Assembly: GCF_035083965.1 (NCBI RefSeq) | Contig: NC_089726.1 | Coordinates: forward strand, 19,969,501 to 20,033,500 | DNA: 64,000 bases | Direction: 5' to 3' | Origin: Branchiostoma lanceolatum | Taxonomy: Eukaryota; Chordata; Leptocardii; Amphioxiformes; Branchiostomatidae | Part shown: piece by piece, positions 8,666-57,733 of the stretch | Layout: every line of letters starts with the position of its first letter | Numbering within the stretch: position 1 is the stretch's first letter | Position numbers and translations under genes: made by a program | The notes under the pieces: generated by a model | Databases searched by the model: none | What the model was told of the DNA's origin: nothing | Seen by the model: the letters and a program-made list of their open reading frames with translations, nothing else

Positions 8666-8667
8666 AA

Positions 8668-16190: not shown

Positions 16191-16253
16191 CCAGTTACCA
16201 TGACTAGCATGAGAAGGTAAAGTCTGCTTTGTCTCTCTCTCTTTGTTAGGATT

Positions 16254-18007
16254 ATGGACGAGAACCGCTGTCCAAGGTCGACGACAGTCAACGGCTGTCA
16301 CGCCGCTTTGTTCTCCCAGGAACTGCAGGAAATGAGGTCGGAGGGTCAGCTGGTGGACGTGACGTTGTGTGCGGAGGGGAAAGAGATTCCCTGTCACCGT
16401 GTGGTTCTCGCGGCCAACAGCAAGCACTTCAAGGCCATGTTCAACGGAAGCCACAGCGAGAGAAGAAGGACAAGATAGAGATGGAAGGGGTGAGCGCTGA
16501 GATGTTACAGCTATTAGTTGACCACGCCTACTTATCCAAAGTCGACATCACAGAAGAAAACGTACATCCTCTGTTTGAAGCGGCGGACATGCTGCAGTTT
16601 AATGGCGTCCAGGGCGATTGTCATGACTTTCTACAAGGTCACGTGAACGAGGAAACGTGTTTGAAAATATGGATGTTGGCGGACAGGGCATCTGTATCAT
16701 TTACTGAGTTAGCCGAGACAGCGAAAAGCTGCGCTCTGAAATGGTTTGAAGAAGCGTGCGCAACCGTGGAGTTTCTTCAGCTACCGGTTCACTTACTGAA
16801 GACATACATCTCAGATGAGGGCCTTCTGGCCAGGAATGAAGAACGAATCCTGGAGGTGGTCATGCTCTGGGCAAGACATGACCTTAAGGAACGACAAAAA
16901 CACCTCAAGGAGCTACTGAAGTGTGTCTGCTTCTCACGTATGGACCAAGACTATCTCCAAAACATTCTGAAGACGGACAGGGTGTTGGCTAAGGTTCGAG
17001 GAATCAAGCAGATGACAAAGAGTCAGTCAACGCACGACAGACCTCGTCAAATTCTTCAGCAAGACTTTCTGCTTCTCGGCGGTTCTCGGCTTTTTCTTGG
17101 TGGTGAGACGGGGAAGGAGATGAGGTTGCATTTGAATAACTACATGTACAGACTCGGCCTTGATTCTCACTGTGTTGACAGAAGCCCACTGCCTGAACCC
17201 TTACAGGACAACAGGGGGATAGCAGCATGTGTTCTCGACGGTGACGTCATTGTGACGGGTGGTCACGAAACGCTGAACCAAGCATGGCGGTACAGACCGT
17301 CGTTGGACTCTTGGACGAAGCTGGGATGTCTACGGACGGGAAGATTCTATCACGGCATGGCAGTTGTGCAGGGACAGGTGTATGTCGTCGGTGGTTCCAG
17401 GCCAGTCCAATATCCAGACAGCATAGAGAGGTTGCCTGACGTTGAGGTGTTCAACAAAAGGACAAACCGCTGGAAGAAGGTCGCACCACTGGAGCTTGCA
17501 GTGAGCAGTTTTGGTATAGCTGCCTGTGGGGGAAAGATCTACGTATTTGGCGGCTCGCCCTATGTATACGACGGTGATGACGTCCGGGAAAATGAGACCG
17601 ATGCTCTCCAAGTCTACGACCCCTTGCAAAATGAGTGGACTTACGACTCAGTGTTGTCGTTGAAGATGACAAGCATACAAGCGTGCACAGTCGGCTCAAA
17701 GATCTACATTGTTGGCGGAAATTTAAAATGTGTGCTGTGCTTCGATCCCGATATACAGATTGTCACATTCATGGCGGATAGACTGTTCCCGTGGGACCAG
17801 TGCAGCGCTACCGTGTGCGGCTCGGAGATCTACATCACCGGCGGCAGGGTTCATCAGTACCTGACCACGGCAAACGGTACCGTGCGTAAGGTGACAAACT
17901 ACGGTTCGGTTCAGTGTTACAACGTGGACAAGGATACCATGGTCTTGAGTAAGGATCTGCCAGAACCACTGTACGGACACTGTACTGTAACTATAGATAA
18001 GACCTAG
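16254..18007 (+). pseudogene. Kelch-like protein gene B with a single frameshift in the BTB domain
   Basis: Starts at Met MDENRCPRST just after a CT-rich tract ending TTAG. The first frame runs through the BTB start (VDVTLCAEGKEIPCHRVVLAA) to about 16462, where genes A and C read GAGAGCAAGAAGGAC and B reads GAGAGAAGAAGGAC. One base is missing, shifting to the second frame. From there the BTB end, BACK and whole Kelch propeller stay open to the stop at 18005-18007, over 510 codons with no other lesion. Everything else is as conserved as in A and C. Either very recent loss of function, a null allele in a polymorphic population, or a base-call/assembly error. If the base is restored the length matches the family (about 584 residues). 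The upstream sequence is a satellite, not the A/C-type 5' region. Confidence 0.85.
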
Positions 18008-20709: not shown

Positions 20710-21765
20710 ACCAGGTTATAGTTTGGCCACCATGACTCATTCTCGAAGGACATGTTAATCATTCCGTGAGCTGACTCTACGGGCCAATTCCCTTTTTAAT
20801 TTTTACCGCGTTCTATACTTGAAGCTCTCCATGCAAAGTTTGTAACTGGGATGGCATACATATACGTGTAGCATGAACTACTAGCAGTAGATAAAACAAA
20901 TCAAATCATATGCATTAGGCCACAGCAAGTAAATTTTATGGATGACAGCGCGCTCATTAATTTCGCCTGATTAGTGATTTTGAAAAAAAAAATCCTCCAG
21001 AGATGGTCAAAATGACGAGAAAGTATTGTCAAAATGTGAAAATATATCGTGTTGTAGTGACACTGGTGGGGTATAGACATGAATCGGTAGTTTGATAGTT
21101 GTAAAAGTCGATGTTAAACTAGCAACAATTTGGTCGCCAACGTTTTTGTCGGGTTTTCTATTTTGCCCCTTTTTCAAAGTTGTGTCGCTATGCAGTGTCA
21201 AAGACAACGTCAAAAGCAAGCCGGAGCCTTGAACCTCTGCTTGGGGAGTTAACGTAAGTCAGATACTAGTCTCTAATGCAGAATGAAAAGCCGGCTTGCA
21301 TGCGGCTGTGATACCATGTTTTGTCGATTCAAATCTTTACAATGTTAATGGTGGTTATTTTGAAAATTTATCCCTCTCGTAGATTGAGTCTGCAGAGAAT
21401 GTCATCCACAAAAATCACTTGCTGCTGTGTTATGTGTATGACTTAACTTGACCGGTATGTATTGAGCCATCAAACCTTTAATATATATTCCATTCCTTTC
21501 CACGCCAGTCCACGGCCACTCTTAATTCCGTCGATCACACCTGGCATTGAAAATCATCGATAGGCGTGCATGGCCGCGGGAAAATATCTCTATTTTCCTT
21601 CGCCGCCTCTGCGACTTTAATCCGAATGACTTTCGGACGTTTTCCCGACGCGTACGGTCCTTGGGTGCTCGATTTTGTCGTTGCCATTACGGCGGGATCG
21701 GGGCTAAACATCCTTGTGTCGAGTGCCGACAATGGTGGCACGGGGATAAATGTGTGGCTCTCATC
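20710..21765. other. Intergenic; includes a CTCTGCTTGGGGAG-family repeat
   Basis: No gene recognised. A diverged member of the 13071-13711 repeat family lies at 21126-21248. The frames at 21547-21765 are open only because they run into the adjoining 15-bp minisatellite. Confidence 0.5.
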
Positions 21766-22068
21766 TGAGCTCTCGGCCTCCGAGCTCTCGGCCTCCGAGC
21801 TCTCGGCCTCCGAGCTCTCGGCCTCCGAGCTCTCGGCCTCCGAGCTCTCGGCCTCCGAGCTCTCGGCCTCCGAGCTCTCGGCCTCCGAGCTCTCGGCCTC
21901 CGAGCTCTCGGCCTCCGAGCTCTCGGCCTCCGAGCTCTCGGCCTCCGAGCTCTCGGCCTCCGAGCTCTCGGCCTCCGAGCTCTCGGCCTCCGAGCTCTCG
22001 GCCTCCGAGCTCTCGGCCTCCGAGCTCTCGGCCTCCGAGCTCTCGGCCTCCGAGCTCTCGGCCTCCAG
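21766..22068. repeat. 15-bp GC-rich minisatellite (GAGCTCTCGGCCTCC)
   Basis: About 20 almost identical copies of a 15-base unit containing a SacI palindrome. As 15 is a multiple of three and the unit lacks stops, several frames on both strands stay open and give Ser-Glu-Leu-Ser-Ala or Glu-Ser-Ser-Glu-Ala repeats. Flanking sequence has no conserved coding signal or clear splice context, so it is treated as a non-coding minisatellite. Confidence 0.93.
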
Positions 22069-23397
22069 GGAAACAGGTGTCTTGAAGGGTGCTACAACAC
22101 GCACACCTACAGAACGATACATACAGGTGGTTAACAATGTACATGTACTGACAAACACTCGACGTTTTGAGAAATTGCGAAGCTGGATACTAAGACATGT
22201 CAAGCGCTAATCCCTTGGCAGATGTTGGGATGGAAGTTTGAACATTTTCTGACTGCTAAGCATTTTTATGGTCTTTTATACTCACACGGGATGGGTGCAT
22301 ATAACGGAAACCGGTTACATCCCAATCACAGTCCTAAACTCCAGAAGGCGGTGTTATTTTCCACTAGATTATGTATCAATGAATACATAATCAGCCGACT
22401 ATTTACAGAATTCTGCTTCAGGGGAATTACACAAGGTGTGTTTTTTTAAACAATATGATACTCACTAAACCCTTGCAGACCCTATCCATGTATTCCCTAT
22501 GTGTAAACATACATTTTTTATTGTGAATATTTTTGGCAAAGATGAGGGTGACAAAGCAAGACAAGTTTTTCTTAACCACCCTGACATTCTTTTTTGTAAT
22601 CTAACGTTTTTGTCATGCCTTGTCAGGCACATTGTAATAAGCCATAGGCTGAGGTTGTTTAATCTAATTAATCAGAAAATAGAGGGTCACCTGGGGAATT
22701 CGGTAGAATACTGAATGCTTTTTGATGCGCACGGGACTAGTGGGTACTTTATCGTATACTGTAAAGAGTACTCATTTTCACTTCCTAAAATCATCATCTT
22801 TTGGAAAATAATTCCCCCCTATGGACTTGAGGACTCCTTTTTCAAAGGGGTGAAAGAAAGAATCTCTTCTTTGCCGGGTGGCAGTTGTGATCTCCGAGTT
22901 AAAGATTCTGACTAAGGTGTCGAAGGTGACACCACCGACGTACCTCCGGATCCTTCTCCAAGAATGGGTACTTTCCTCTTCCTCGAGAGCTTCTTTAAGG
23001 GACAGAGGATACATGCGCACCCTAGTCTTGCCATCAAACCCGGCTTAGCTTCCGACTTTGATTCAGTGGTTCCCATGATTGAATTGTCTTCAACTTGATA
23101 AGACGACAAATTGACTAATTCACAGCTAACTTTAGATATCCATACCTTGTTCGACTGTGAACGGCCAGTGATAATAATTGTTCGAGAACAAATGTTGCGT
23201 CTTGGATTATGCTATTCGATCGGAGGGGTTTGTGTGTATTTTTTTGCTAGGAATCAAATTATTTTTCAAGGCAATTTTGAATGGGAGGGGGGTTGTTTTA
23301 TTTGCCAATCACGTCAAAGTATTAGCCTCTACCAGGCTCCGCGGATCGCTGGGAAAGTAGTAGAAATTGGTTAAATATAGTGTTCTTGCTAGATCTT
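22069..23397. other. Intergenic, no gene recognised
   Basis: Several frames of 60-90 codons on both strands, none with a recognisable domain or compelling splice sites. Confidence 0.45.
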
Positions 23398-24368: not shown

Positions 24369-25256
24369 GTAAGTAAAGTATGCCTAGGCTAGAAGCTCTG
24401 GCTGTGTGTGAATTATGTTGTGTTTTGGTTTTGGGGGGATGAAGTTATGGCACTAGCTAGCGGTTATTATTTTTTGGGGGGGGGGGGGGGGCAGCTATGT
24501 CTATGGAGTGGGTATGCAACTCTGCTATAACTTATACCTTGCTTATACTGCCGAACTGAATTGGTTGTTAAAATGTTAAGATAATTCCGATAACACAACC
24601 CAGAACTAAACCCAAAGTGAACTGTCCAGAATTCAACAGAAAGTGATACAGGGTCACTTTTCATTGATTGAAAATCTCATAAACAAAGACACAGATGTTA
24701 TAATTTCTACCTACATGGCAAGTAATTTACGTAAGAAGAGAGGAAGGTTAGATAATTTGCATATCAGAACGGTGGAAACAAAGCCACCAAAACTTGTAGT
24801 ACGAAGGCCCATAAGGACAAAACAAGAGACCAAAGCAGTGCCAACCATTTCCATTACCAGTGCCATACAATTTCCACAGTAGCATGATTACATGCTTTTC
24901 TTAAGGTTGTTTCTCAAATCAGATGTCGAGACATTAGAATTATGATAATTGTTCCTATAGTGCCAAGTTTCTTTGCATTGGCTAGTACAATCCAACAATG
25001 CAAGTTTTTTTTGGCAAAGCCTTAGGAGCGAGCCTAATCGTGATTGTATAGTATTGTGTGCAGTTTGCAAGAATTCTAGGAATTGTACGTACAGAAATTT
25101 GTTCTCGGGCATTTCAAGCCAGTAAAAATATTTGGAATGTTAGCAGTACAAAGGATAGAAAGTCATGCAGCCCCCCTGGTGACATTTGTCCTAGAAAACC
25201 TAGGCAGGCAGCCACATGTGTTAATCTAACCATTCTTGTTTCTTTTCTTTGTCCAG
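24369..25256 (+). other. Putative first intron of kelch gene C
   Basis: Bounded by GTAAGT at 24369 and a TTTCTTTGTCCAG acceptor ending at 25256. It contains a poly-G run (24477-24491) and the block 24797-24886 (AGTACGAAGGxCCATAA..CAATTTCCACAGTAGCATGA) shared with the gene A intron at 8248-8335. Confidence 0.5.
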
Positions 25257-25262
25257 AATAGA

Positions 25263-27020
25263 ATGGATGCGCACTGTGGAATGGATGTCTGTCCTGATAC
25301 ATCAGTAGACAGCTGCTTCGCGGGCTGGTTCTTCAAGTCATTGAGAAGTCTAAGATCGGAGGGTCTTCTGGTGGACGTGACGCTGTGTGCCGAGGGAAAA
25401 GAGATCCCCTGTCACCGCGTCGTTCTAGCAACTTGCAGCGACTACTTCAAGGCCATGTTCGGCGGAAGCCTCAGTGAGAGCAAGAAGGACAAGATAGAGA
25501 TGGGAGGGGTGAGCGTAGAGGCATTGCAACAGTTGGTAGACTACGCCTACACGTCCAAAGTCAACGTCACCGAAGAAAACGTTCGTCCTCTGTTTGTAGC
25601 CGCCAACATGCTGCAGTTTGCCCATGTGGAGACTGCTTGTGAAAAGTTTCTAATAAAGAGCTTGAGTCCCACGACCTGTATGGGAACCTGGGCACTTGGG
25701 CACAAGATGTCGTCCGAATGGGTGTCTGACAGGGCCAGGCACTGTGCCATCAAAAACTTTGAAGAGGCATGCAAGACTGAGGAGTTTCTCGAGCTGCCCC
25801 TCGACATCTTGGAGACGTACATCTCAGAAGACGGGCTTCATGCCAAGAAGGAGGAGCGAGTTTTGGAGGTGGTCATGCTCTGGGTAAGACATGATCTTAA
25901 AGAACGACAAAAACACCTCGAGGATCTACTTGAGAGTGTCTGCTTCTCAAGCATGGACCAAGACTATCTCAAGAACATTCTAAAGAAAGACAAGGTGCTG
26001 GGAAAAGTTCCTGGAGTCAAGAAGCTGACAGAAGATCAGTCTCTGCACAGAAGCCCTCGCGAAATCAGTCAAAATGACATTCTTGTTCTCGGAGGGGTTA
26101 AAGATCACTACTTGAACAGGACCATTAGTTTGAGCGAGAGAGTCTACAGGCTTGAGCTTGATTCTCATTGCGTTGACAGCAATCCGCTGCCGCAGCAAAT
26201 TCGTGACAGTCAGGGCTTTGCAGCCTGTGTTCTTGACAAGGACGTGATTGTGACAGGCGGGAACAAATCTCTCCGTCAAGCGTGGAGATACAGACCATCC
26301 CAGAAGTCCTGGAAGAGGCTGGCGTCCTTGAAGACAGGGAGATACGGGCATGGGATGGCAGTTTGCGAGGGAAAGGTGTACGTCGTTGGCGGTTGCAGCC
26401 ATACGACGTATATCAATACACACATTCTGTCTGACGTAGAGGTGTACAACGAGAGAACCAACCGTTGGAAGAAGGTGGCACCACTAGAGCTTGCAGTGAG
26501 CAACTTTGCCTTAACTGAGTGCAGTGGGATCCTCCACGTTTTCGGTGGAGTTATCGAACCCGACCGGCACACTAAGACTGACTCTGTACAGTGGTACGAC
26601 CCCACCTCTAATGAGTGGAGGTTTGGACTGCAGATGCCAGCGGCAATGGCGAACCTCATAGCATGCACAGTTAACTATGAAATCTACTTGCTTGGTGGAC
26701 CGTTAAAGTGTGTGATTAAATACATGCCCTGGCTGTATTACGAGGACTTGGCGGACAAACTGGCCCCGTGGGATCACTGCAGCGCCACAGTGTGCGGCTC
26801 GGAGATCTACATCACCGGCGGGCAGTCGGAACCAGAAATGGTAGAAGTGGAACGTTCTCAAACTTCACAGATTATTTCAAGCACTTCACATTTCCATTGT
26901 GACAACCACGCGACGGTTCAGTGCTACGACACCAACTATGACACCATGGTCAAGGTTAAGGATCTACCATTGGCACTGGATGGACACTGCACTGTAACTG
27001 TGCCCAAAGACTTAGACTAA
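25263..27020 (+). CDS. Kelch-like protein (BTB-BACK-Kelch), gene C
   Basis: 585-codon intact frame. BTB about 20-130 (VDVTLCAEGKEIPCHRVVLA), BACK about 135-240 (EEFLELPLDILETYISEDGL), Kelch propeller from about 290 with VTGG, VVGG, FGG, LGG and ITGG strands. The start chosen is the Met six bases after acceptor AG 25255-25256; the upstream in-frame Met at 25236 lies in the polypyrimidine tract. By family it is a CUL3 E3 substrate adaptor. Protein and upstream DNA are closest to gene A. The loop before the last VQCY strand is longest here (about 32 residues, Ser/Glu/Thr-rich) and unlike the same loop in A or B, suggesting different substrate specificity. Confidence 0.93.
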   Translation: MDAHCGMDVCPDTSVDSCFAGWFFKSLRSLRSEGLLVDVTLCAEGKEIPCHRVVLATCSDYFKAMFGGSLSESKKDKIEMGGVSVEALQQLVDYAYTSKVNVTEENVRPLFVAANMLQFAHVETACEKFLIKSLSPTTCMGTWALGHKMSSEWVSDRARHCAIKNFEEACKTEEFLELPLDILETYISEDGLHAKKEERVLEVVMLWVRHDLKERQKHLEDLLESVCFSSMDQDYLKNILKKDKVLGKVPGVKKLTEDQSLHRSPREISQNDILVLGGVKDHYLNRTISLSERVYRLELDSHCVDSNPLPQQIRDSQGFAACVLDKDVIVTGGNKSLRQAWRYRPSQKSWKRLASLKTGRYGHGMAVCEGKVYVVGGCSHTTYINTHILSDVEVYNERTNRWKKVAPLELAVSNFALTECSGILHVFGGVIEPDRHTKTDSVQWYDPTSNEWRFGLQMPAAMANLIACTVNYEIYLLGGPLKCVIKYMPWLYYEDLADKLAPWDHCSATVCGSEIYITGGQSEPEMVEVERSQTSQIISSTSHFHCDNHATVQCYDTNYDTMVKVKDLPLALDGHCTVTVPKDLD

Positions 27021-28366: not shown

Positions 28367-30549
28367 CGGTGGCCTCAAAACCACCGCAGATACCTAATTT
28401 TTTCCCTGCCGCGAAATCAAATTCCTGTGTACGAACATTCCCCTCTAACAGTAATATAATTACACAGTAATATAAGTGAAATTCATGGTTCAAATTGAAT
28501 CATAATCAACAAAAGATATCGTGTCCGGAATCAAGTACTAGTATTCACACCCCTTCTTTTTTCTAAAGTTTAGATTTCGTTAATCAAATCAAACCACAAT
28601 CTCTGTTGATTTACAACTGAATTGACTGATTTTGGGGTATGAATAATTTTCTTATTTACAGTATCTTCTTGTATTATGTTTTATTTTATGTACCACTAAG
28701 CTTATCTTTTTTGCGTTTCGGCGCATGCGCGCCGAAACGCTTTGTCCTGGCTTTTACCTTCAAGCAAGGACCAGGGAAGCTTGGTTCAACACTGTGTCGC
28801 ACACAATAAGACCTTATATGGCAATACGTTCTCAAATCCTTGTATAGCCGTTACCTTATATGGCAAGAGAGCACGAAAAGGCAGGCACGCTAGATTTGCA
28901 TGTGACACAGGACGGCGACCGCATGTAACTGCTACAACTGTTCGGAAATATCATTGCATTGTGGTTTCGGACTTTGATATCCTGAAAAATGACCATATTA
29001 CATCTATTCCACAAGATTGCAGAAGAAAAAAAATGATTTCGTCAAGAAAACGAGCAAAAATCGGCATAAATGATACCATATAGTGAGGTTATAGCATTAC
29101 GTCCAAAGTATGTAAATACGTACCGCAGCTCGGCCGATCTGGCAACGCGAAGCACTTCGGACCCAGAAGATCCGGGTTCGTGTCCGTGCATGAATTTTTT
29201 TTTTCTTTTTAGATATTGAATATCAAAAATATATATTGATATTATATTAATCTATCAATATCATATTTATGAATATCATTTTTTTCATTAATAAATAAAG
29301 AAATATTTTATATTTGTTATTTTTAAATATTCATTTAATATATACAAGGCCTTTGTCTTATGAATAGGACTTCATAGATTCCAAACCCGGCATTCGAATT
29401 TTTCTGTTCATTGTAATGGAAAATACCGTGCAGCGGCTCCTATGCGCGGTAAGATGATTCTTGCAAAACACTCGCCACTAAACTTTTATCCCCGATGTAA
29501 ACAGAGGCTCTTGATGTTGTTTGCAAAACAGCGATTCTTTGTTACAGTAGCAAATGCTCCATTGTTCAGTATCGACTTCATTCAGACAACACGGACGTGG
29601 AAAGTGGCGCCCCTCGGCACAAAACTATGGGAATTTTCATGAATTTTAGCAAAATTACCCAGGAAAATAAGGAAGAAATGTTGTAAATGCGGAAACCAGA
29701 ATAATACGGATGAGGTAGCTGTTGATTTGTTTGACATTTGGTAGTCATTTTAGATAGAACCTTAGCTGTTATGAACTTCTATTTCACTTAATTACCATAG
29801 TGCTGATGATTCAATGGTGCTTTTTCAAATTTTATGTTTTATTGCGTGCCATGTACATAATTACATTGATAGCTTTTATAATGAGCATATTATACATTTT
29901 ACAAATAAGCACAAGTTGTAGGCCAAGACCAGCTTTTTCAAAAGCACTTAAGTTAAGTGACGTAACTTCAAAATTACTTTCCCCAATCTGCCTTTCTCTA
30001 TTAAAACAGTACTCATTTCCCAAAATGACAATTTTTCTTATAGACTGAACAGCCCTTGAGTGACTTCCTCTGGCAGATTTTACTTCAAGTAAAGGGAAAA
30101 GACAATTCACACTTATAAACGTAGCCGAAACGCCAGCTTTTTTTAAAAGCTCTTGTTTATATTAATTTGATAAAAGATTTCGTACTTCACCCCCATGGGG
30201 TTGTTCCTATTGGTTATGTAGCCATAACGTCATAAGCGTCTTATTGTGGGTAACGTTAGTGAAGAAGAAAGCCATACACCAATGATCTGCCAATAATGAA
30301 TACTTCACTTGTAGGAATGATGGTATTTCGCTTTTTAAAAAAAGTTATTGTCAGTTCAATTTCCTATATGATAACAACGTTAATGCCCCGCTTTTCCCTC
30401 GGTGTTTACGGAGACATCCCGCGTTGTCACTGACATAACAAGAGTTCGGAGACAATATCTCCATCAAATATTTTGATTATGCAAATGTCCTCCACAGTTG
30501 CATTATATATGCTTGGTCAAGTGCACTTGTGGTATTTAAATGGGTAAAA
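28367..30549. other. Intergenic; palindrome and tRNA-like relic, no gene recognised
   Basis: Contains a 28-base inverted repeat (28713-28740, arms GCGTTTCGGCGC) and a tRNA-like segment (listed separately). Open frames (for example plus 28742-29083) have no recognisable domain. Confidence 0.5.
29118..29205 (+). repeat. tRNA-like Pol III relic
   Basis: A-box-like CAGCTCGGCCGATCTGG, an anticodon-arm-like hairpin (CTTC..GAAG with a 7-base loop) and B-box GGTTCGTGTCC are in the right order and spacing, followed by a run of T (terminator-like). Loop position 33 is not T and the acceptor stem is poor, so this is a tRNA pseudogene or SINE head. Confidence 0.4.
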
Positions 30550-31750
30550 TCCACGTGTCAAAGTGCACGTGAAAACTCCACCCCACAGGCCCAAAGCCTC
30601 CAAAACCTGGCCTTCAGCACCAAGGACGTCACCAACGCCCCCTAGCAGAATGTAACAACCTAGGCAGATTATTCGATACTTGGTTTTCTAACATCTTTCA
30701 TAGCACAAGTTAACTCGGAAATGTAGCGCTGCAGATAATTAGCATATGCATCCTAAGTAATCAGAGCGGATCATGTATCGGAACTGTTTAAACTTACTTT
30801 CACTGGTGTAAGCGCATGATGGTGGTAGGTTTAAACACAAGCTATCTCGAAGAATAATGAATGGTTTATAGTTTATGTTTTAAGGCCGCAGTCAAAGCTT
30901 CAACAATACAAAGCTCTGACACTCCTTTGTCGTTTTTATCACCCACGTATTTTCTGATTCGAAAGATAGAAGGTGGGAAGCAACCATATGCATCTTCAAG
31001 CGCCAACAGCGAGCACAGCGGCAGAGCTAGGGAAAGAAAACAATTTCTACGCTTCCAGACATTTCCATTAGAGCTAGCTCCCACGGGAGCCTACACAGCA
31101 GTACAGTGACTATTTGCATTCCATGCAGTCACGCCACCTTGGCAGTGGTATTTGCATATACGTCACGGATGTTATCTGTTATCTTCATCAAACTCAGCGT
31201 CATCACTATTTTCTCCACCTTGCCACCGGCCTCGAATTAATAACATAAACTAAAAACGCGGAAGTTTTCACCAAAACAGAGAGGAAGTCGTACAAACAAA
31301 TGAGCTTTAAGGCTTAAACAGCGCGTGACAAACGGAACCAAGTTTCACTAAACACTAGGTCTGGGGTCACTTTGCAGTGGACAATAAATTAGTAACATCT
31401 ATCCATGTAGATGAATACTGCATTAAAAACTTCATCATGAGACTGCAGTTTTGATATAGATCGCTAGAGAGCAGGTCACGTTCAGACCCTCCTTATAGTG
31501 TACAATTGGTGTTTTGTAAGAACATTTCCATCAATTTATGATCAGAGATAATCCCCGAGATGAGAGATAATCCTTACCGGAGGTCATCGTGCACATACGT
31601 TGCTGTTAAGCTTTATACAAAGCGCACACCTACAGTCCGTAGTACTCCGTACCCGCGATTAACGCCGGACCGTAAATTGGCAAGACCTCAGAAAGTCATG
31701 GGTTTAACAATAAAGTTTATTGCATATTCATGCCCAACGGAGGGCTAAAT
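30550..31750. repeat. Segment paralogous to about 38755-40080
   Basis: Landmarks recur in the same order: CAAAGTGCACGTGxAAACT (30557 and 38762), ATCCTAAGTAATCAGAGCGG (30750 and 39107), GGTTTAAACACAAGCTATCT (30828 and 39189), AGAACATT..GATCAGAGATAAT (31520 and 39477). The right-hand copy is interrupted by a large inverted-repeat element. No gene recognised within it. Confidence 0.75.
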
Positions 31751-32044
31751 CGAATTGCGTAAATTCCAGCATGAATACACGGTATTCTTGTTATCTATAT
31801 ATACACGCCCTGATATACATGATTGGTTTTAGACACGCATTGTTTTACCATACCCGTAGGTTGTTACGTGAAAGGAATCACAGTTTGAAATAGTAGATCC
31901 TGATAAAGGCGAAGACTGTCATATTGTGTCTGGATGATCTGATTATTTTTCGACATAACTAATTTCCTTTAGCACGAATTCTGCTGTTCAGATGACGTCG
32001 GTGGAAACTTCTGTTGTTCAGGTCATCCGGCAGATCGCTGAGAA

Positions 32045-33023
32045 CTAGCGTCTTCTTCGATCGTCTGTGTACAAAAAAATATCTGTATAAGGGACAAGTA
32101 CCAACTGCAATGCATAATTAGTTGAAACCATGAATAAACATATCCCAGGGACAGCCATCATATATTTTTGGAAATCTGTAGTACTCTAAGCAACACCATA
32201 ATCCGAATCAACCGTTTTGTCGTCAAATATACAGAAAGATTGGTTATAAAAGTAAAGGTAGACGAGCGCAACTTGATCGTTATCAATATTTTGTGTCTAG
32301 ATCTTGTCAATGTGGTTACCGATGCATTTAAAATGTGAATAGCTCCTTACACTGGTCGCACAACGAGCCATGCTGACGACCAACGTTAGCGGTTTCCATG
32401 AAAATGTGGTAAATCACATAGAGTGGGCTAGAAAGGGTAAATAGGACGAAATTGGTCTCGTGGTCTTACGGCGACAAGTGTGAAACTAGACTGACTGATT
32501 ACCTTTTTTAAGATCCGCGAGCATGTTCTCCAAATCCATGTCCTTCAGTCCCCGTCTGTCCAACTGTTCAGGCTGTTCATCCAGTTCTTCCAGGAGCGAC
32601 CTCGCCTCTTCCACAACCTCCCTCAGCTCTAAGTCAACTGGAAGGAGAAACGGGAAGGTACATATTACTATAGTTACATATAACGCTGGTGCTGCATCAC
32701 ATGAATGCACGAATTCAATCTTCAAGAACATTTTAGACACTAAAACGAGTGTGACGTCGTGGAATGTATCTCAGCTCTCTATAAAAGGTTTTGTTCTGCG
32801 TGCGATGCTTGAACATTGTATTAGCAATCCTTAGCCAACCAGAGAAAATCTAGACAAAATTGAATTGTCCGTCTGAATGTTTGTGATGACCAAACGTACC
32901 ATCATCGGCATCGCGTTTACCGCTCCTTCTGCGCCTGCGTCGGCGCCTCCATCCCTCGGAGTCGTCGATCAGCGTTGCCACGACAACTATCGTTACAAGC
33001 AGCATGCAAACGAACAGCTTCAT
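32045..33023 (-). CDS. Secreted Arg-rich amidated-peptide precursor, copy 1
   Basis: Spliced minus-strand gene. Coding exons 33023-32900, 32637-32503 and 32064-32045 join in phase (1 then 1) to 92 codons; non-coding exon 1 ends at 33284 and exon 2 starts at 33036, all with GT-AG sites. Residues 1-19 are a signal peptide (MKLFVCMLLVTIVVV..). Then come DDSEG, Trp25, eight Arg (26-33), Ser34, and Gly35-Lys36-Arg37, a standard prohormone cleavage plus C-terminal amidation signal. Residues 38-86 are an acidic, helix-prone propeptide (LREVVEEARSLLEELDEQPE), and the C-terminus is DDRRRR. Signal, short cationic core and acidic pro-region is the layout of antimicrobial peptide precursors, but function is inferred. 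A later AG in the last exon would instead give about 28 other residues ending at 31959. Confidence 0.7.
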
Positions 33024-33283
33024 GATGTAGTTTGAACTGTAGAGGAAAAAAAAACACAATCTTGATTAGTCGGGTCTTGCTTGCCTTTTTTGACGTCCTA
33101 GAAACGGAGGCAAAACTATCCCTAGGTTGTTTGAAAACGTTACAACATCAGTAATTGTTAAAAGACAGAGCCGAAACATATACAACAGTTTTATCATTGT
33201 GGTAACCTGCTACGAAAACATTCATTGAGACCAATGCATTGTAGAAAACCATGCCCTACAGTTGGTAAAAGCATAATACTTAC

Positions 33284-33402
33284 AGAATTCCTGGACAGGT
33301 AGATCACGGTACGACGTCTCTCAGATGTCAGGCTGGAGGGACTGAATGAGGAGAACTCGCGGAATGGCAATATATACTCCAGGGTAAGACAATTATGCAA
33401 AT
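33284..33402 (-). promoter_or_regulatory. Promoter and non-coding exon 1 of peptide gene copy 1
   Basis: On the minus strand an ATGCAAAT octamer (33395-33402) precedes a TATATA box (33371-33376) by about 19 bases. A start near 33347 would give a non-coding exon ending at donor GTAAGT (exon end 33284). The arrangement is unchanged in copy 2. Confidence 0.65.
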
Positions 33403-33976
33403 GCGTCATTGTATTGATGTAGGTGGTGACTTAGTGTTCCTTGTCTGTTGATGATACTGCTATGGGCGTGTCGTGCCTGCTTAAAGACACATGTGAAAAG
33501 ATGATACACATATGGCAAAGAAAATTGTCTGTCAATGGTAGAGACGTGTCATACTGAAAAAGAAATAGAGAAGACAACTATAAAAACACACGTTTATGAA
33601 AGGAAATGGCATCTGTGCGTGAAATCAGCATACAATGTACAGAAAACCAACAGACAACTTCCTTTGCTTGGTCGTGTCTTGACCTAACTATAGAATTCAG
33701 ATTGGACACGTACGATTGAATTGGGCAGAGTGTGTGAGTAGTCTTGGCGCCGGAAATCGTTCAAACAATATATATTGTGGTATGAAATAGTTAAAACGAA
33801 AAGTGAAGTCTTTATTGTACAGGGTACACAGAATAACACACGAGCGTGCGAAACTGCATAGTATGTGTTTTATTGGACTGAAAAAATAACTCTTGCAACT
33901 TTTAAATAACAATTGTTTGTACACTTTTTTAAGTGTCCCCAAATTTGAATTTTGAAATTCCACTAAGTATTCAACC

Positions 33977-34200
33977 CCCGGGCCCTTTGTGAACTTTGTT
34001 GATCTCACCATTTCAGAGAAGACCAATTTTGTGAAGTTTATTCAGGAAGCGGATGGGATCGGCACTGCAGAAAAGGCTCTGATTGTGACAGTCAAGGATC
34101 ATATCTTTAGAAGCCGCAAATATTTATGCAGCGCTCACCCGGAATCTTCCGATTTCTCTTTGAAAACTTCTTGCAGACGTCTTCTTGAGACCCACAAATG
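33977..34200 (+). other. Duplicated open frame of unknown nature, copy 1
   Basis: A plus frame containing NFVDLTISEKTNFVKFIQEA continues about 70 codons. It recurs at 37556-37775 with several amino-acid changes and a three-base deletion. No known domain recognised; it may be a decayed exon. The following text 'ccctagcggctttctatg' recurs near 34685, 34800 and 37788. Confidence 0.3.
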
Positions 34201-34405
34201 ATTTTGGGCCCCCTAGCGGCTTTCTATGTTACTGCAGATGAACTTCGGGTTTTGATTGGTAACATTGAATAACTGAATAACTAGACCCGGCTACCATTTT
34301 TAATCATCATAGTACTTTTTTATACTTTCAGTGAAGTTTATCTAGGAAGCTACAGTCCACTTCTTACACCAATAAATGAATAAACAAATAAATAAAACAT
34401 AATCG

Positions 34406-35324
34406 TAATGTTAGGTGAAACGCATTGTACATTTGTAGGCAGTCCTTTGTTTCAATACAGAAGATGTTAGCTTTCTGATGGATCCGTATTTGCATTCGCA
34501 TTCACTGGTGAAAAATCAGTTTTCATAATCATTACATTAGTCGAGAAGGTTATCTTTTGCATAGCGTTCTTGTGTGTGTGTGTCCTTCTGTCAACACGAT
34601 GACTCAATAATGGCTGCGTGTATTCTATTTATACTTGGTAGGTAGGTGGGTCTTCTTGAGACCTCAAAATGATTTTGAGCCCCATAGCGGCTTTCTATGG
34701 TACAAAGGAGGTTTTATATCTCGTGTTCTGGAGATGCTCAGGTCATGACAATTTAGTGGCAGGTAGGGAGGGAGAGTAAGTCGTGTGGGTTCGGGCACCC
34801 TAGCGGCTTTTTAAACTTACGTTTCACAGGACTTCTCGAAGGACTGCCAACAAACGCATAATGTGCGTTTCATCTAACGATTGTGTTTAGAAAGTTGTAA
34901 GAAAACGAAGAGGGTTGTAGAGCAGATAAGCTTTTTCTATGTGAAGGGAATGGCTCAAATGTGTTTTTGATATGTTTTCGATAATGGGTGCACGTGTATC
35001 GAAATAAAGGAAGAGATGATATAAGATGCTAGCCGTGTGTAGTTATTAAGCGTAGTTTTCAAAGAAGAAAATACGAAAAACACTGAAATATTGATGTATA
35101 CAGCAGTTGTATTTTACATACAAAGATCGTTGATTTGCACATTTCTACAATACTAGCCCTTTGTGGAAATACGGATAGTCGATACTATTGCTATTTTAGT
35201 GGGTGGTTTTAAGGTACAGGCTTCCTCTTTAAGTGTAAACACATGTAGATAAATAGATAGAATAAATCAACTCACAATGATTTTTTTCAATTCGATTTAT
35301 TGAACGATCACGTATCAGTGCACA
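34406..35324. other. Spacer between the two duplication units
   Basis: Non-coding. It contains extra copies of the 'cccctagcggctttctatg' motif (34685, 34800). No gene recognised. Confidence 0.5.
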
Positions 35325-35620
35325 GAATTGTGTATATCCCAGCATGAATACACTGTGGTATTCTTGTTATCTATATATACACGCCCTGATATACATGATT
35401 GGTTTAAGACACACATTGTTTCACCATATCCGTAGGTTGTTACGTGAAAGGAATCACAGTTTGACATAGTAGATCCTGATAAAGGCGAAGACTGTCAGAT
35501 TGTGTCTGGATCATCTGATTTTTTTTCGACATAGCTAATTTCCTTTAGCACGAATTCTGCTGTTCAGTTGACGTCGGTGGAAACTTCTGTTGTTCAGGTC
35601 ATCCGACAGATCGCTGAGAA

Positions 35621-36600
35621 CTAGCGTCTTCTTCGATCGTCTGTGTACAAAAAAATATCTGTATAAGGGACAAGTACCAAATGCAATGCATAATTAGTTG
35701 AAACCATGAATAAACATATCCCAGGGACAGCCATCATATATTTTTGGAAATCTGTTGTACTCTAAGCAACACCATAATACGAATCACACGTTTTGTCCTC
35801 AAACATACAGAAAGATTGGTTATAAGAGTAAAAGTAGACGAGCGCAACTTGATCGTTAACAATATTTTGCGTCTAGATCTTGTCAATGTGGTTACCGATG
35901 CATTTGAAATGTCAATAGCTCCTTACACTGGTCGCACAACGAGCCATGCTGACGAACAACTTTAACGGTTTCCATGAAAATTTGGAAAATCACATAGAGT
36001 GGGGTAGAGAAGGTAAATAGGACGAAATTGGTCTCGTGGTCTTACGGCGACAAGTGTGAAAAATAGATTGACTGATTACCTTCTTCAAGATCCGCGAGCA
36101 TGTTCTCCAAATCCATGTCCTTCAGTCCCCGTCTGTCCAACTGTTCAGGCTGTTCATCCAGTTCTTCCAGGAGCGACCTCGCCTCTTCCACGACCTCCCT
36201 CAGCTCTAAGTCAACTGGAAGGAGAAACGGGAAGGCATATATTACTATAGTTACATATAACGCTGGTGCTGCATCACATGAATGCATGAATTTAATCTTC
36301 AAGAACATTTTAGACACTAAAACCAGTGTGACGTCGTGGAATGAATCTCAGCTCTCTTTAAAAGGTTTTGTTCTGCGTGCGATGCTTGAGCATTGTATTA
36401 GCAATCCTTAGCCAACCAGACAAAATCTAGACAAAATTGCATTGTCCGTCTGAATGTTTGTGATGACCAAACGTACCATCATCGGCATCGCGTTTACCAC
36501 TCCTTCTGCGCCTGCGTCGGCGCCTCCAGCCCTCGGAGTCGTCGATCAGCGTTGCCACGACAACCATCATTACAAGCAGCATGCAAACGAACAGCTTCAT
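35621..36600 (-). CDS. Secreted Arg-rich amidated-peptide precursor, copy 2
   Basis: Same structure as copy 1: coding exons 36600-36477, 36214-36080 and 35640-35621, exon 2 starting at 36613 and exon 1 ending at 36860, 92 codons. Relative to copy 1 the signal peptide changes Thr-Ile to Met-Met (residues 11-12) and the propeptide changes Lys-Lys to Glu-Glu (85-86). The Trp plus eight Arg plus Ser-Gly-Lys-Arg core is identical in protein although its coding DNA carries two silent changes (Gly24 and Ser34). The Arg codons are mixed (AGG, CGC, CGA, AGA), so the run is not a simple DNA repeat. The alternative longer C-terminus would end at 35535. Nothing points to loss of function. Confidence 0.7.
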
Positions 36601-36859
36601 GATGTAGTTTGAACTGTAGAGAAAAAACAAAACAATCTTGATTAGTCGGGTCTTGCTTGGTTTTTTTAACGTCATAGAGGCGGAGGTAAAACCATTCCTA
36701 GGCTGTTTGAAAACGTTACAACATCAGTAATTGTTAAAAGACAGAGCCGAAACATTTACAGCAGTTTTATCATTGTGGTAACCCGCTAAGAAAACATTAA
36801 TTGAGACCAATGCATTGCAGAAAACCATGCCCTACAGTTGGTAAAAGCATAATACTTAC

Positions 36860-36979
36860 AGAATTCCTGGACAGGTAGATCACGGTACGACGTCTCTCAG
36901 ATGTCAGGGCTCGAGGGACTGAATGAGGAGAACTCGCGGAATGGCAATATATACTCCAGGGTAAGACAATTATGCAAAT
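36860..36979 (-). promoter_or_regulatory. Promoter and non-coding exon 1 of peptide gene copy 2
   Basis: TATATA at 36948-36953 and ATGCAAAT octamer at 36972-36979 (minus-strand gene), with donor GTAAGT just below 36860. Spacing is identical to copy 1. Confidence 0.65.
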
Positions 36980-37555
36980 GAGACATTGTATTGATGTAGG
37001 TGGTGACTTAGTGTTCCTTGTCTGTTGATGATGCTGCTATGGGCGTGTCGTGCCTGCTTAAAGACACATGTGAAAAGATGATACACATATGACAAAGAAA
37101 ACTGTCTGTCAATGGTAGAGACGCGTCATACTGAAAAAGAAATTGAGAAGACAACTATAAAAACAGACGTTTATAAAAGGAAATGACATCTATGCGTAAA
37201 ATCAGCATACAATGTACAGAAAACCAACAGACAACTTCCTTGGCTTGGTCGTGTCTTGACCTAACTATAGAATTCAGATTGGACACGTACGATTGAATTG
37301 GGTAGAGTGTGTGAGTAGTCTTGGCGCTGGAAATCGTTCAAACAATATATATTGTGGAATGAAATAGTTAAAACGAAAAGTGAAGTCTTTATTGTACAGG
37401 GTACACAGAATAACACACGAGCGTGCGAAACTGCATAGCATGTGTTTTAATGGAGTGAGAAAATAACTTTTGCAACCTTTGAATAACAATTGTTTGTACA
37501 CTTTTTTAAGTGTCCCCAAATTTGAATTTTGAAATTCCATTAAGTATTCAACCCC

Positions 37556-37775
37556 CGGGCCCTTTGTGAACTTTGTTGATCTCACCATTTCAGAGAAGAC
37601 CAATTTTGTGAAGTATATTCAGGAAGCGGATGGGACCGGCACTGCAGAAAAGGCTCTGATTGTGACAGTCAAGGATCATATCTTTAGAAGCCGCAAATAC
37701 TTATGCAGCGCTCACCCGGAATCTTCCAATTTCTCTTTGAAAACTTCTTGCAGTCTTCTTGAGATCCACAAATGA
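37556..37775 (+). other. Duplicated open frame of unknown nature, copy 2
   Basis: Paralogue of 33977-34200. Substitutions between the copies are mostly replacement changes, plus one in-frame deletion near the end, which argues weakly against strong coding constraint. Confidence 0.3.
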
Positions 37776-37988
37776 TTTTGGGCCCCCTAGCGGCTTTCTA
37801 TGGTACTACAGTGGAACTTCGGGTTTTGATTGGCAACATTAAATAACTGAATAACTAGACCCGGCTACCATTTTTAATCATCATTATACTTCTTTATACA
37901 TTCAGTGAAGTATATCCAGGAAGCTACAGTCCACTTCTTGCACCAATTAATACATAAATAGATAAATAAAACACAATCGTAAAATCGT

Positions 37989-38700: not shown

Positions 38701-38794
38701 TATGATTGTATCGCTTGTTGTAAGACGTTAAGTGGCATTTGAACGTGTAAGATCTACGCCTCAAAGTGCACGTGGAAACTTCACCCCACAGGCT

Positions 38795-40008
38795 AGTGCT
38801 GCGTACCTAAACGTAACATCAGGTACAGGTACAGGTACCGGGACAGAGGTTTAGGTACAGGTCCGGACCTGTACCTGTACCTAAACAATTTGAAAAATTA
38901 ACATGCGTTCTTCTGAACTTTTTCAATAATGACAGAAACATCAATAAACTGTTTTCAACTTGTCAGTATCTTTATTCAAAGAACATACTAGGTTTCCTAC
39001 CGCCAAACTCCCTTTGCCTTGCTATCAAAACTCCCGGCCTGCCGGAATAATCTGTTGCATATTAGTTATGCTCGGAAATTAAGTGCTTCAGATAATTCGC
39101 ACATACATCCTAAGTAATCAGAGCGGATCATGTATCGGAACTGATTAAACTTACTTTCTCTGGTGTATGCGCATTAATGATGGTGGTAGGTTTAAACACA
39201 AGCTATCTCGAAGAATAATGAATGGATTTTATGGCTTACCTTTCAATGCCTTGGCCAAAGATGTAATGAAATACAAAAAGAACCAATCTCTGACACTCAC
39301 ATTTGTCGTTTTTATCGTCCACATATTTTCGGATTCGAAAGATTGAAGGTGAAAAGTGACCTGCAATTTTGATATGGATCGCTAGAGGCCACTATCCGGG
39401 TGTTGCACGCTGGTGGCAGGTCGCATTCAGAACACAATAGAACAGACCCTCTTAGTGTGTAATTGGCGTTTTATAAGAACATTCCCAACAATGTAGGATC
39501 AGAGATAATCGCGCGACATGAGAGATACCCCTTGCATATTGCTGTTAAACTCTGTACAATAGTGCTGCGTACCGGTACTGTGTACTCTGTACCGGTATTG
39601 TACCGTAAAAATGGATTAAGGACAGGTCCAAAATACCGGATCATGAAGTACCGGTACTGTACCAAAATAGATTTACACAAAGTACATTATGTTTATTTTG
39701 TGCACCACCAAACGTGACCAAAGTGACACCTTGGATCAGCGTAACTAATATGCAACAGATCATTCAGGCAGGAAGGGAGTTTATATAGCAAGACCAAAGG
39801 AGTTTGGCTGTAGAAACCTAGTTATGTTCTTTGAATGAAGATACTGACAAGTTGAAAACAGTTTATGTATGATTCTGTCATCATTGAAGAAGTTCAGAAA
39901 AGCTCATTAAATTTTTCAAATTGTTCAGGTACAGGTACACGTCCGGACCTGTACCTAAACCTCTGTACCAGTACCTGTTCCTGATGTTACGTTTAGGTAC
40001 GCAGCACT
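38795..40008. mobile_element. 1.2-kb inverted-repeat structure with ~270-bp arms
   Basis: Left arm 38795-39070 (AGTGCTGCGTACCTAAACGT onward) is the diverged reverse complement of right arm 39738-40008. The interior (39071-39737) is sequence shared with 30720-31560. Arm tips are rich in 'ggtacaggtac'. A further partial copy of the tip occurs at 39562. No transposase frame. Confidence 0.8.
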
Positions 40009-41858
40009 ACTGTACACGCGCACACCGCACAGTCCGTACCGCCCATTGCTATTTCAGAACGTCATGGGTTTAACACGACAAATACGAAATTTGGTGCCAA
40101 AACCTTGTTTCAATGGCGTGGCTGACATGTTTACAAGTTTTCCAGTTTCCCTCCGATCTCCCATCACGATGCTGTCCCGGAAATTCCTCAGCACCAAGGA
40201 CAGGGGAGGGCGGCTGATTTACGTGTTGTTATGGACAAAAGATTAGAGCAGCTGTTAAACCACATTGCATTGCCGCATTGCACTACCGTGGACTCATTAA
40301 TCATTTACGGTGCAGAGGTGAAATGGGCACTATAGAGGTGTACAGTTTATGTTGGGCAACCCAAAGAAGACCATGCAGTAGCGACCTCTAGCGACCTAGC
40401 TCAGAAGCGCAGTCTCAACTGTCGGCGTCGTTAACGCATGACTATGTTTTTCATCACGGCTTTAGATGACTACCATATTTTTTCTTATTGTACAGGCCAT
40501 GATATATGTGATTTCGGTGAAAGCAAAAATCACTAAGACTTTTGAAAATGCTTCAGAGCTGAGCTTGTTGAGTTCAAATTGGCCTGTAAAGTTACTTCTG
40601 AAAGGCATATGCGATTTGTCAAAATTAATTTCAATGCTCTAGTCATAAACAAGCATTTATACATTCGATGATAAGTGATTCGAGACTTTTGATGCTCTTC
40701 TGGCTCTCACCTGTGGCTTAACTTAAGAACTGCAGTAGTAATTGATTAATCGATTGTGTTGAACGACATACTGTAATTCACTTTTTTTCACGGTAGCAAA
40801 ATTTCAAGGTGTAAGGAAAATGGACATTTTCACTAAACGACATACTGTAATTCACTTTATTTTCGCGGTAGCAAACTTTCAAGGTGTAAGGAAAATGGAC
40901 AATTTCACTGAACTTAAACTTCACGGTGGCAGCAAGTAATTTACAGAACAGATGTGAGAAGGAATCATAAATATTAACAAAATGTCTTTTCACGGTGATG
41001 ATATGTTCACGATACAGAGGTGACAGTGAAAACAGCGAACATAAAGGTTAAAGAAACACGAATAACAGTAACGAAGACCATGCGGTAGCGACCTCTATCG
41101 ACAGAATTTTACTTTGCAGCAACATTAAACTTCCGGCCCAAGCGTTATGTACAGAATGGATCAGGAAAAATGGAATGATGAGAATTTACAAGAATACCAT
41201 AAAGAAATAAGGCAACATTTGCGTACACATGACTCCTGTACAAAGATAAAATTCCAACATTTTTTTACTATAACAAGGGAAAAAACAAACCTCTACTTTG
41301 GGAATTCCAACCTACGACACAGATCAAATACTAAAAAAAAAACTACGAGAAAGGCTGTCAAATCGGTCTTTCGCTAGCTATAGCTATGTCTTTTTGGCGC
41401 TTGAAACGATATGCGGTCCCCCACAGGCCCTGCCCCCATAGCAAGCCGCTTAAAAGACCAAGAATTGCCTCATGGTAGACCGAAAAGTTAATGATTACCA
41501 TACGTTTGTCCTCGCTGAACAAAATTGACCTTGTGTAGCAAAGACTGGAAATACGTGTTGTGGCATTTACAACATAAGTCTTTGATATTTGTTCTTCATT
41601 TAGTCATTCGACCATGCGACCGATGGTATCAGTCATTGACATTCGTTAGTCAACAAGTCATTCGACCTAGCGATCGTATGTGTGCCTATATATAGCCTCG
41701 GAACGTATGCCCGTATTTGGCATCTAGGCCCATATAAGGGGAACTCTCGTTGCAACAAGTTGTGCAACCCACGTTTCCACACACCTGAGCGCACCTACAC
41801 TAGACCAGACCGTCTTCACGTTCTCTCTCACCTGAGTCGCCGAAAAAGCCCCCACAAG
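40009..41858. other. Intergenic upstream of the FABP-like gene
   Basis: Contains a two-copy 74-bp tandem repeat (40763-40912, 'acgacatactgtaattcac') and a repeated 'gaagaccatgc.gtagcgacctcta' (40369 and 41077). No other gene recognised. The FABP promoter and 5' UTR should lie within the last few hundred bases; 'ctatatatag' at 41687-41696 is a possible TATA box. Confidence 0.45.
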
Positions 41859-57600: not shown

Positions 57601-57682
57601 TTTTGAATATTGTCAACATGGCTAACCCTTTGCAATAGCCATCGGCTAGTTGGGTAGCCCTGGCTGTACTTTTTAACATCCA

Positions 57683-57733
<51 letters not shown>

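What the first reader, a model, noticed from the sequence alone, without database searches (positions are those of the whole stretch)
32045..33023. Candidate new peptide: precursor for an amidated Trp-(Arg)8-Ser core
Seen: signal peptide, then Trp25, eight Arg, Ser, Gly-Lys-Arg, then an acidic pro-segment, across three coding exons with compatible phases. Known: Gly-Lys-Arg is the classic amidation plus dibasic cleavage signal, and a cationic core with an acidic pro-region is typical of antimicrobial peptide precursors. Inference: a secreted oligo-arginine amide, possibly antimicrobial, cell-penetrating or a neuropeptide. I do not recognise this family.
Basis: partly seen in the sequence, partly recalled or inferred. 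Interest (0 to 1): 0.85.

Follow-up and report, generated by a model that had tools for sequence, protein, structure and literature searches.

The report
Tandem genes for an octa-arginine peptide
Two neighbouring animal genes appear to encode a small secreted precursor that would release a peptide made almost only of arginine (Trp, eight Arg, Ser, amidated end), laid out like known antimicrobial peptide precursors; no transcript or peptide has been seen yet.

Summary
On the minus strand a four-exon gene (exon 1 untranslated) gives a 92-residue precursor: signal peptide, Trp-Arg8-Ser, Gly-Lys-Arg, acidic helical tail, with TATA box, good splice sites, no upstream ATG in the predicted message and a poly(A) signal. 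A second intact copy lies at 35.6-36.9 kb (95.1% DNA identity; 88 of 92 residues identical; core and GKR unchanged). Exons diverge less than introns (8/356 versus 51/946, p = 0.016), but CDS alone is borderline (p = 0.053) and dN/dS uninformative. No relative appeared in Pfam, PDB, viral or prokaryotic DNA; no animal genome or RNA was searchable. Best reading: an amidated oligo-arginine defence peptide masked by its acidic tail, working like tachyplesin or piscidin precursors without shown homology. Doubts: the signal cleavage site is ambiguous (Gly24 or Ala16), and convertases could shred the Arg run. Octa-arginine inhibits furin at nanomolar levels, so an endogenous convertase inhibitor is the boldest reading not excluded. 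New variant of a known kind; moderate interest.

The parts
33395..33402 (-). octamer ATTTGCAT, 18 nt upstream of the TATA box (gene A)
   Evidence: same in gene B; role inferred
33371..33376 (-). TATA box (TATATA), gene A
   Evidence: initiator-like TCATTC has its A 29 nt downstream of the first T (counted by eye in the promoter sequence)
33284..33347 (-). exon 1, untranslated, gene A (start inferred from TATA/initiator spacing)
   Evidence: donor TTCT|GTAAGTATT, 91.9 percentile; 1 of 64 sites and 1 gap column differ from B
32900..33036 (-). exon 2, gene A: 13 nt 5'UTR, ATG at 33023, signal peptide, Trp-Arg8-Ser, Gly-Lys-Arg, Asp-Ala-Asp-Asp
32922..32951 (-). codons of the Trp-Arg8-Ser core (residues 25-34), gene A
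32913..32921 (-). codons of Gly-Lys-Arg, predicted amidation and dibasic cleavage signal, gene A
   Evidence: sequence; function inferred
32503..32637 (-). exon 3, gene A: acidic amphipathic pro-segment
   Evidence: model of 44 residues: helices 3-20, 27-31, 35-43, mean pLDDT 74.7
32045..32064 (-). coding part of exon 4, gene A: Asp-Asp-Arg4-stop
   Evidence: 0 of 20 sites differ from B
31716..31721 (-). poly(A) signal AATAAA, gene A, just outside the duplicated unit
36972..36979 (-). octamer ATTTGCAT, gene B
36948..36953 (-). TATA box, gene B
36860..36924 (-). exon 1, untranslated, gene B (start inferred as in A)
36477..36613 (-). exon 2, gene B (ATG at 36600): signal peptide, Trp-Arg8-Ser, Gly-Lys-Arg
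36080..36214 (-). exon 3, gene B: acidic pro-segment
35621..35640 (-). coding part of exon 4, gene B, ending in the stop
35296..35301 (-). poly(A) signal AATAAA, gene B, just outside the duplicated unit
31752..34408 (.). duplicated unit, copy A
   Evidence: 95.1% identical to 35325-37982
35325..37982 (.). duplicated unit, copy B

Best explanation
Two tandem genes each encode a secreted precursor that is routed by its signal peptide, cut at Gly-Lys-Arg by a dibasic convertase, trimmed by a carboxypeptidase and amidated on Ser, to release a very short, highly cationic peptide, Trp-Arg8-Ser-amide (or an N-terminally longer form). The acidic helical tail (-9) balances the core (+8) and keeps it harmless and partly protected until processing. 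Outside the cell the peptide would bind anionic microbial surfaces, LPS or nucleic acid, with Trp anchoring it in the membrane, as a defence peptide. Shown by computation: gene structure, paralogue, charge layout, helix prediction. Inferred: expression, cleavage sites, amidation, masking, target and defence role.
For: Coherent four-exon genes with TATA box, splice sites, first ATG (checked for A) and poly(A) signal in two copies. Both frames intact: 0 gap columns in 279 CDS sites, 9 gap columns in the rest of the aligned unit. 5'UTR plus CDS differ at 8 of 356 sites, introns at 51 of 946, p = 0.016. Core and GKR identical in both copies. The order signal - basic core - G-basic-basic is rare by chance (2 hits in 60 simulated windows). 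Comparable layouts: piscidin precursors run signal - mature peptide - C-terminal prodomain and their genes usually have four exons, the first a 5'UTR exon (PMC2830478, PMC7369796, passages); the tachyplesin precursor is listed among those with Gly-Lys or Gly-Lys-Arg amidation signals (PMC4805251, passage). The exon 3 segment is amphipathic (16 of 2000 shuffles reach its moment) and helical in the model.
Against: No RNA or peptide evidence. Conservation of CDS alone is borderline (7 of 279, p = 0.053 against introns, 0.072 against all non-exon sequence counted), and 4 of 7 coding changes alter the protein, no clear deficit against random change (mean 4.99; P of 4 or fewer = 0.32). Trp-Arg8-Ser is neither an amphipathic helix nor a hairpin. 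L-nona-arginine can be cleaved by furin (PMC11394684, passage), so the enzyme needed at GKR might destroy the core. The signal cleavage site is ambiguous and in copy B the site upstream scores higher. Neighbouring genes (KLHL, NXPE) say nothing about immunity. Only two, nearly identical copies are in the window, without the core diversity often seen among defence peptides; the rest of the genome could not be searched.
Confidence: 0.48

Rival explanations
1. Endogenous proprotein-convertase inhibitor: the released oligo-arginine, or the Arg run in the intact precursor, occupies the acidic substrate cleft of furin-like enzymes and tunes or blocks them.
For: Octa-L-arginine inhibits furin with Ki 0.061 uM and PACE4 with 0.15 uM (PMC11394684, table passage); nona-D-arginine amide 1.3 nM and Trp-bearing cyclic oligo-arginines 0.10-0.98 uM (PMC4482483, passages). 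The core is the natural-peptide equivalent of these synthetic compounds.
Against: L-polyarginine can be cleaved by furin, and terminal blocking lowered the potency of other hexapeptides (passages); PC1 is inhibited far less, 5.1 uM by octa-arginine. No family matched in Pfam. Nothing links the gene to convertase-bearing cells.
Confidence: 0.12
2. Neuropeptide or peptide hormone precursor giving an amidated basic peptide and acidic linking peptides.
For: GKR amidation signal and further dibasic sites (Arg69-Arg70 in both copies, Lys85-Lys86 in copy A).
Against: The KK site is EE in copy B; a single, non-repeated core without a neuropeptide motif known to me; eight Arg in a row would be a poor convertase survivor; no Pfam match.
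Confidence: 0.1
3. The Arg run is only a processing site: the signal peptide is cut after Ala16, convertases cut within Arg8 and at GKR, and the product is the acidic helical peptide 38-68 or 38-92.
For: Ala16 scores close to Gly24 in copy A and higher in copy B; an Arg run is an extreme furin-type site; the exon 3 segment is an amphipathic helix in the model.
Against: Four basic residues suffice for furin (general knowledge), so eight plus GKR is excessive; the Gly before Lys-Arg would have no purpose.
Confidence: 0.14
4. Arg run as a cis-acting brake: the nascent Gly-Trp-Arg8 stretch slows translation, as in the human PTPRJ signal peptide.
For: The human PTPRJ extended signal peptide holds RRTGWRRRRRRRR, reported to attenuate translation (PMC7725344, passages).
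Against: In PTPRJ the run lies in an N-terminal extension before the hydrophobic segment; here it follows the hydrophobic segment and is followed at once by an amidation-type site; the proteins are otherwise unlike.
Confidence: 0.03
5. Not a functional gene: chance exons, a dying duplicate, or one gene duplicated falsely by merging two haplotypes.
For: No transcript; protein-level constraint not shown; 5% divergence is of the order of allelic divergence in lancelets (recalled).
Against: Intact frame and all splice sites in both copies; chance scan 2 hits in 60 simulated windows; the spacer, the sequence before A and that after B show no allele-like match to one another, apart from a 54-bp repeat within the spacer, so a false duplication is less likely, though not excluded.
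Confidence: 0.13

Closest known systems
Tachyplesin/polyphemusin precursors (horseshoe crab)
   Same: Gly-Lys(-Arg) amidation signal (passage); signal peptide, short Trp- and Arg-containing basic core and acidic C-terminal segment (recalled; the 1990 precursor paper was not read)
   Different: Tachyplesin is a disulfide-locked hairpin (recalled); this core has no Cys and is an Arg homopolymer; no sequence relation shown
Piscidin/pleurocidin family (teleost fish)
   Same: Usually four exons with untranslated exon 1, signal peptide in exon 2, mature peptide directly after it, C-terminal prodomain (passages)
   Different: Piscidin mature peptides (22-65 residues in sea bass) are amphipathic and encoded by exons 2-4 there; here the whole core sits in exon 2 and is not amphipathic; no Pfam match
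Styelins (tunicate Styela)
   Same: Chordate; layout signal - GW... core - acidic tail (recalled)
   Different: Longer, cecropin-like peptides (passage); not compared by sequence
BjAMP1 (lancelet Branchiostoma japonicum)
   Same: 24-residue signal peptide, 97 residues, acidic region, dibasic site, acidic overall pI
   Different: Opposite order: acidic region first, cationic peptide at the C-terminus (NLCASLRARHTIPQCRKFGRR); the full precursor is not in the text read, so it was not aligned
Synthetic oligo-arginines (octa-L-arginine, nona-D-arginine amide)
   Same: Runs of Arg, some amidated; cell-penetrating and furin-inhibiting (passages)
   Different: Man-made; the listings of the paper searches run (two listed 15 of 30 and 15 of 79 papers) showed no gene-encoded secreted octa-arginine amide, which is a weak negative

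Membership tests
Amidated cationic peptide precursors with acidic pro-tail (tachyplesin-like layout) | signal peptide, basic core, Gly-basic-basic, acidic tail in this order | tested here: met
   exact signal cleavage site ambiguous; amidation itself not testable
Tachyplesin/polyphemusin family | four Cys forming a two-disulfide hairpin core (recalled) | tested here: not met
   core WRRRRRRRRS has no Cys
Piscidin family | sequence match to the family | tested here: inconclusive
   no piscidin/pleurocidin-type Pfam hit for either copy, but HMMER's filters drop most weak hits and no member was aligned directly; that Pfam holds such a model is recalled
Piscidin family | four exons, exon 1 untranslated, signal peptide in exon 2 | tested here: met
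   predicted structure against passages of PMC7369796
Piscidin family | amphipathic mature peptide | tested here: not met
   core is Trp, eight Arg, Ser
BjAMP1 | cationic peptide C-terminal to the acidic region | tested here: not met
   order reversed
Neuropeptide precursors | expression in neurons or endocrine cells and a receptor | not testable with these tools
   no expression data available
Endogenous convertase inhibitors | inhibition of furin-like enzymes by the peptide | not testable with these tools
   literature on synthetic octa-arginine only
Antimicrobial peptides | microbicidal activity and immune expression | not testable with these tools
   no assay or RNA data

The most novel reading that the evidence does not exclude
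A chordate genome encodes, in two tandem genes, a natural octa-arginine amide: a gene-encoded counterpart of the synthetic R8 cell-penetrating and furin-inhibiting peptides, kept inert by an acidic helical pro-segment and released as a convertase inhibitor or cell-entering defence peptide.
Probability: 0.15. Interest if true: 0.8.

Novelty: new variant of a known kind. Interest (0 to 1): 0.55.

Why it matters
If the core is released intact it would be a strikingly plain case of a natural homo-arginine peptide, the very chemistry that is used synthetically for cell entry and furin inhibition. It would pose, and let one test, how a cell carries a run of eight Arg through the secretory pathway without its own convertases destroying it, and would add a new layout to the few antimicrobial peptides reported from lancelets.

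Tried and rejected
Own-genome search failed because no genome is held for the window. Pfam gave only hits below the curated cut-offs: copy A Conotoxin 0.2 and YxzE 0.29; copy B FAM192A_Fyv6_N 0.089, DUF4400 0.16, HemY_N 0.17, Conotoxin 0.23. PDB sequences gave two chance-level hits, E 0.36 and 7.1. Viral and prokaryotic DNA scans matched short patterns (26 and 412 stretches) but found no relative by tblastn; these collections are not of animals, so this is no evidence on lancelets. A further diverged gene copy was sought by tblastn of both coding exons and blastn of the unit against the window, and not found. The idea of a second active peptide GLKDMDLENMLADL between RR and KK was dropped because KK is EE in copy B. 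A simple-repeat origin of the Arg run was rejected on its codon mixture. One search used exon bounds off by 1-3 nt and printed an out-of-frame translation; correct it, and the p-values (0.015 and 0.072) are superseded. Fold searches were not run: the only model is a 44-residue segment.

Full report
Observation. Reading the minus strand at 33.4-31.7 kb gives a gene with four exons. Upstream lie an octamer (33402-33395) and a TATA box (33376-33371); an initiator-like TCATTC has its A 29 nt downstream of the first T of the TATA box (counted by eye), which puts the start near 33347. Exon 1 (33347-33284) is untranslated. Exon 2 (33036-32900) opens 13 nt before the first ATG of the predicted message. 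Exon 3 is 32637-32503; exon 4 starts at 32064 and carries the stop at 32047-32045. AATAAA lies at 31721-31716. Both coding introns are phase 1.

More than chance. A scan of six frames for a hydrophobic start, a basic core (net +4 or more) and Gly-basic-basic found 5 Met starts in the window, all reading into exon 2 of two genes; 60 order-3 Markov windows gave 2 hits and none with net +7 or more. The Arg run is written with four different codons (AGG, CGC, CGA, AGA); its two halves look partly alike (AGGCGCCGACGC / AGGCGCAGAAGG), so it may have grown by a 12-nt duplication (inference).

A second gene. The unit 31752-34408 recurs at 35325-37982 with 95.1% identity. Gene B keeps promoter, all splice sites and frame. 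Of 92 residues 4 differ: T11M and I12M in the signal peptide, K85E and K86E near the end. Trp-Arg8-Ser-Gly-Lys-Arg is unchanged. Substitutions: 5'UTR plus CDS 8 of 356; introns 51 of 946 (Fisher p = 0.016); CDS alone 7 of 279 (p = 0.053 against introns); other non-exon sequence including the 3'UTR but leaving out the 100 bp before exon 1, 111 of 2197 (5'UTR plus CDS against this p = 0.020, CDS p = 0.072); the 100 bp before exon 1 differ at 2 of 100. dN 0.019, dS 0.050; 4 of 7 coding changes alter the protein against 4.99 expected at random, P = 0.32. So the transcript structure looks preserved, while selection on the protein is not shown. A false duplication from two haplotypes is a concern at 5% divergence (allelic divergence recalled), but the spacer 34409-35324, the sequence before A and that after B do not match one another as alleles would.

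Anatomy of the precursor. Residues 1-24 are signal-like. With a recalled von Heijne matrix the best cuts are after Gly24 (4.79) and Ala16 (4.45) in A, and after Ala16 (3.87) and Gly24 (3.09) in B; the site is undecided. Residues 25-34 carry +8; residues 38-92 carry -9, pI 4.3. The exon 3 segment is amphipathic (moment 0.52 over 21 residues; 16 of 2000 shuffles reach it) and modelled as helices 3-20, 27-31 and 35-43 of the 44 residues folded, mean pLDDT 74.7, from a single sequence.

Relatives. Pfam at E up to 10 and PDB sequences gave chance-level hits only. Viral contigs and prokaryote genomes gave none, as expected for an animal gene. Of nine other reading frames of the window scanned with Pfam, three are KLHL genes open without introns, three match NXPE-type domains (one of them, 57055-57549, only weakly) and three match nothing.

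Mechanism. Best supported: secretion, cleavage at GKR, trimming and amidation give Trp-Arg8-Ser-amide (or an 18-residue form), masked in the precursor by the acidic helix, and used as a defence peptide. The layout resembles tachyplesin-type and piscidin-type precursors (passages read; the tachyplesin tail is recalled). Sea bass piscidin genes also have an untranslated first exon and the signal peptide in exon 2. The Arg run is the difficulty: furin can cut L-nona-arginine, yet octa-L-arginine inhibits furin at 0.061 uM (review passages and table). That makes two rivals serious: an endogenous convertase inhibitor, and an Arg run that is merely a cleavage site. A text search for motif strings found one paper, on PTPRJ, whose human signal peptide holds Gly-Trp followed by eight Arg and acts as a translational brake; I take this as convergence of sequence, a weak rival.

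Known or new. Searches of the main texts of an open-licence library (for lancelet peptides and the motif; 19 and 35 for oligo-arginine) showed no lancelet precursor of this kind. I saw listings, all 18 but only 20 of 123, 15 of 79 and 15 of 30, and passages or named sections of eight papers; supplements were not searchable, so absence from print is weakly supported. The lancelet peptide BjAMP1 has the reverse order, acidic first and cationic last (PMC4683396, abstract, one results section and passages). Membership in tachyplesins, piscidins or BjAMP1 fails on a defining feature of each; it works like them at most. I rate it a new variant of a known kind. Confidence that it is a real secreted-peptide gene is about 0.85; that the core is the product and a defence peptide, about 0.48. 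On checking I raised the odds of the non-functional rival from 0.10 to 0.13 so that they sum with 0.85.

Noticed in passing
30529-31575 and 38732-39533: Co-linear older direct repeats (82-84% in the main pieces) flank the two-gene block, suggesting a larger ancient duplication; no third gene copy was detected beyond it in the window.
   Followed up: partly
38794-40009: Inverted repeat, arms about 280 bp and 88% alike, perhaps an inserted element in the older flank copy.
   Followed up: no
8590-10380, 16250-18004, 25230-27017: Three KLHL-type (BTB-BACK-Kelch) reading frames open without introns, in tandem on the plus strand; the BTB match of the second is partial.
   Followed up: partly
53468-60115: Reading frames on the plus strand with Neurexophilin and NXPE4_C matches, probably exons of an NXPE-family gene.
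   Followed up: partly
21689-22138: 15-bp minisatellite of over 20 units, open in several frames on both strands.
   Followed up: no
33395-33402 and 36972-36979: Octamer ATTTGCAT 18 nt upstream of TATA in both genes; 18 such octamers in the window on both strands. Could point to POU-factor control.
   Followed up: no
32045-32064: The predicted precursor ends in Asp-Asp-Arg4, a second Arg run of unknown use, identical in both genes.
   Followed up: no
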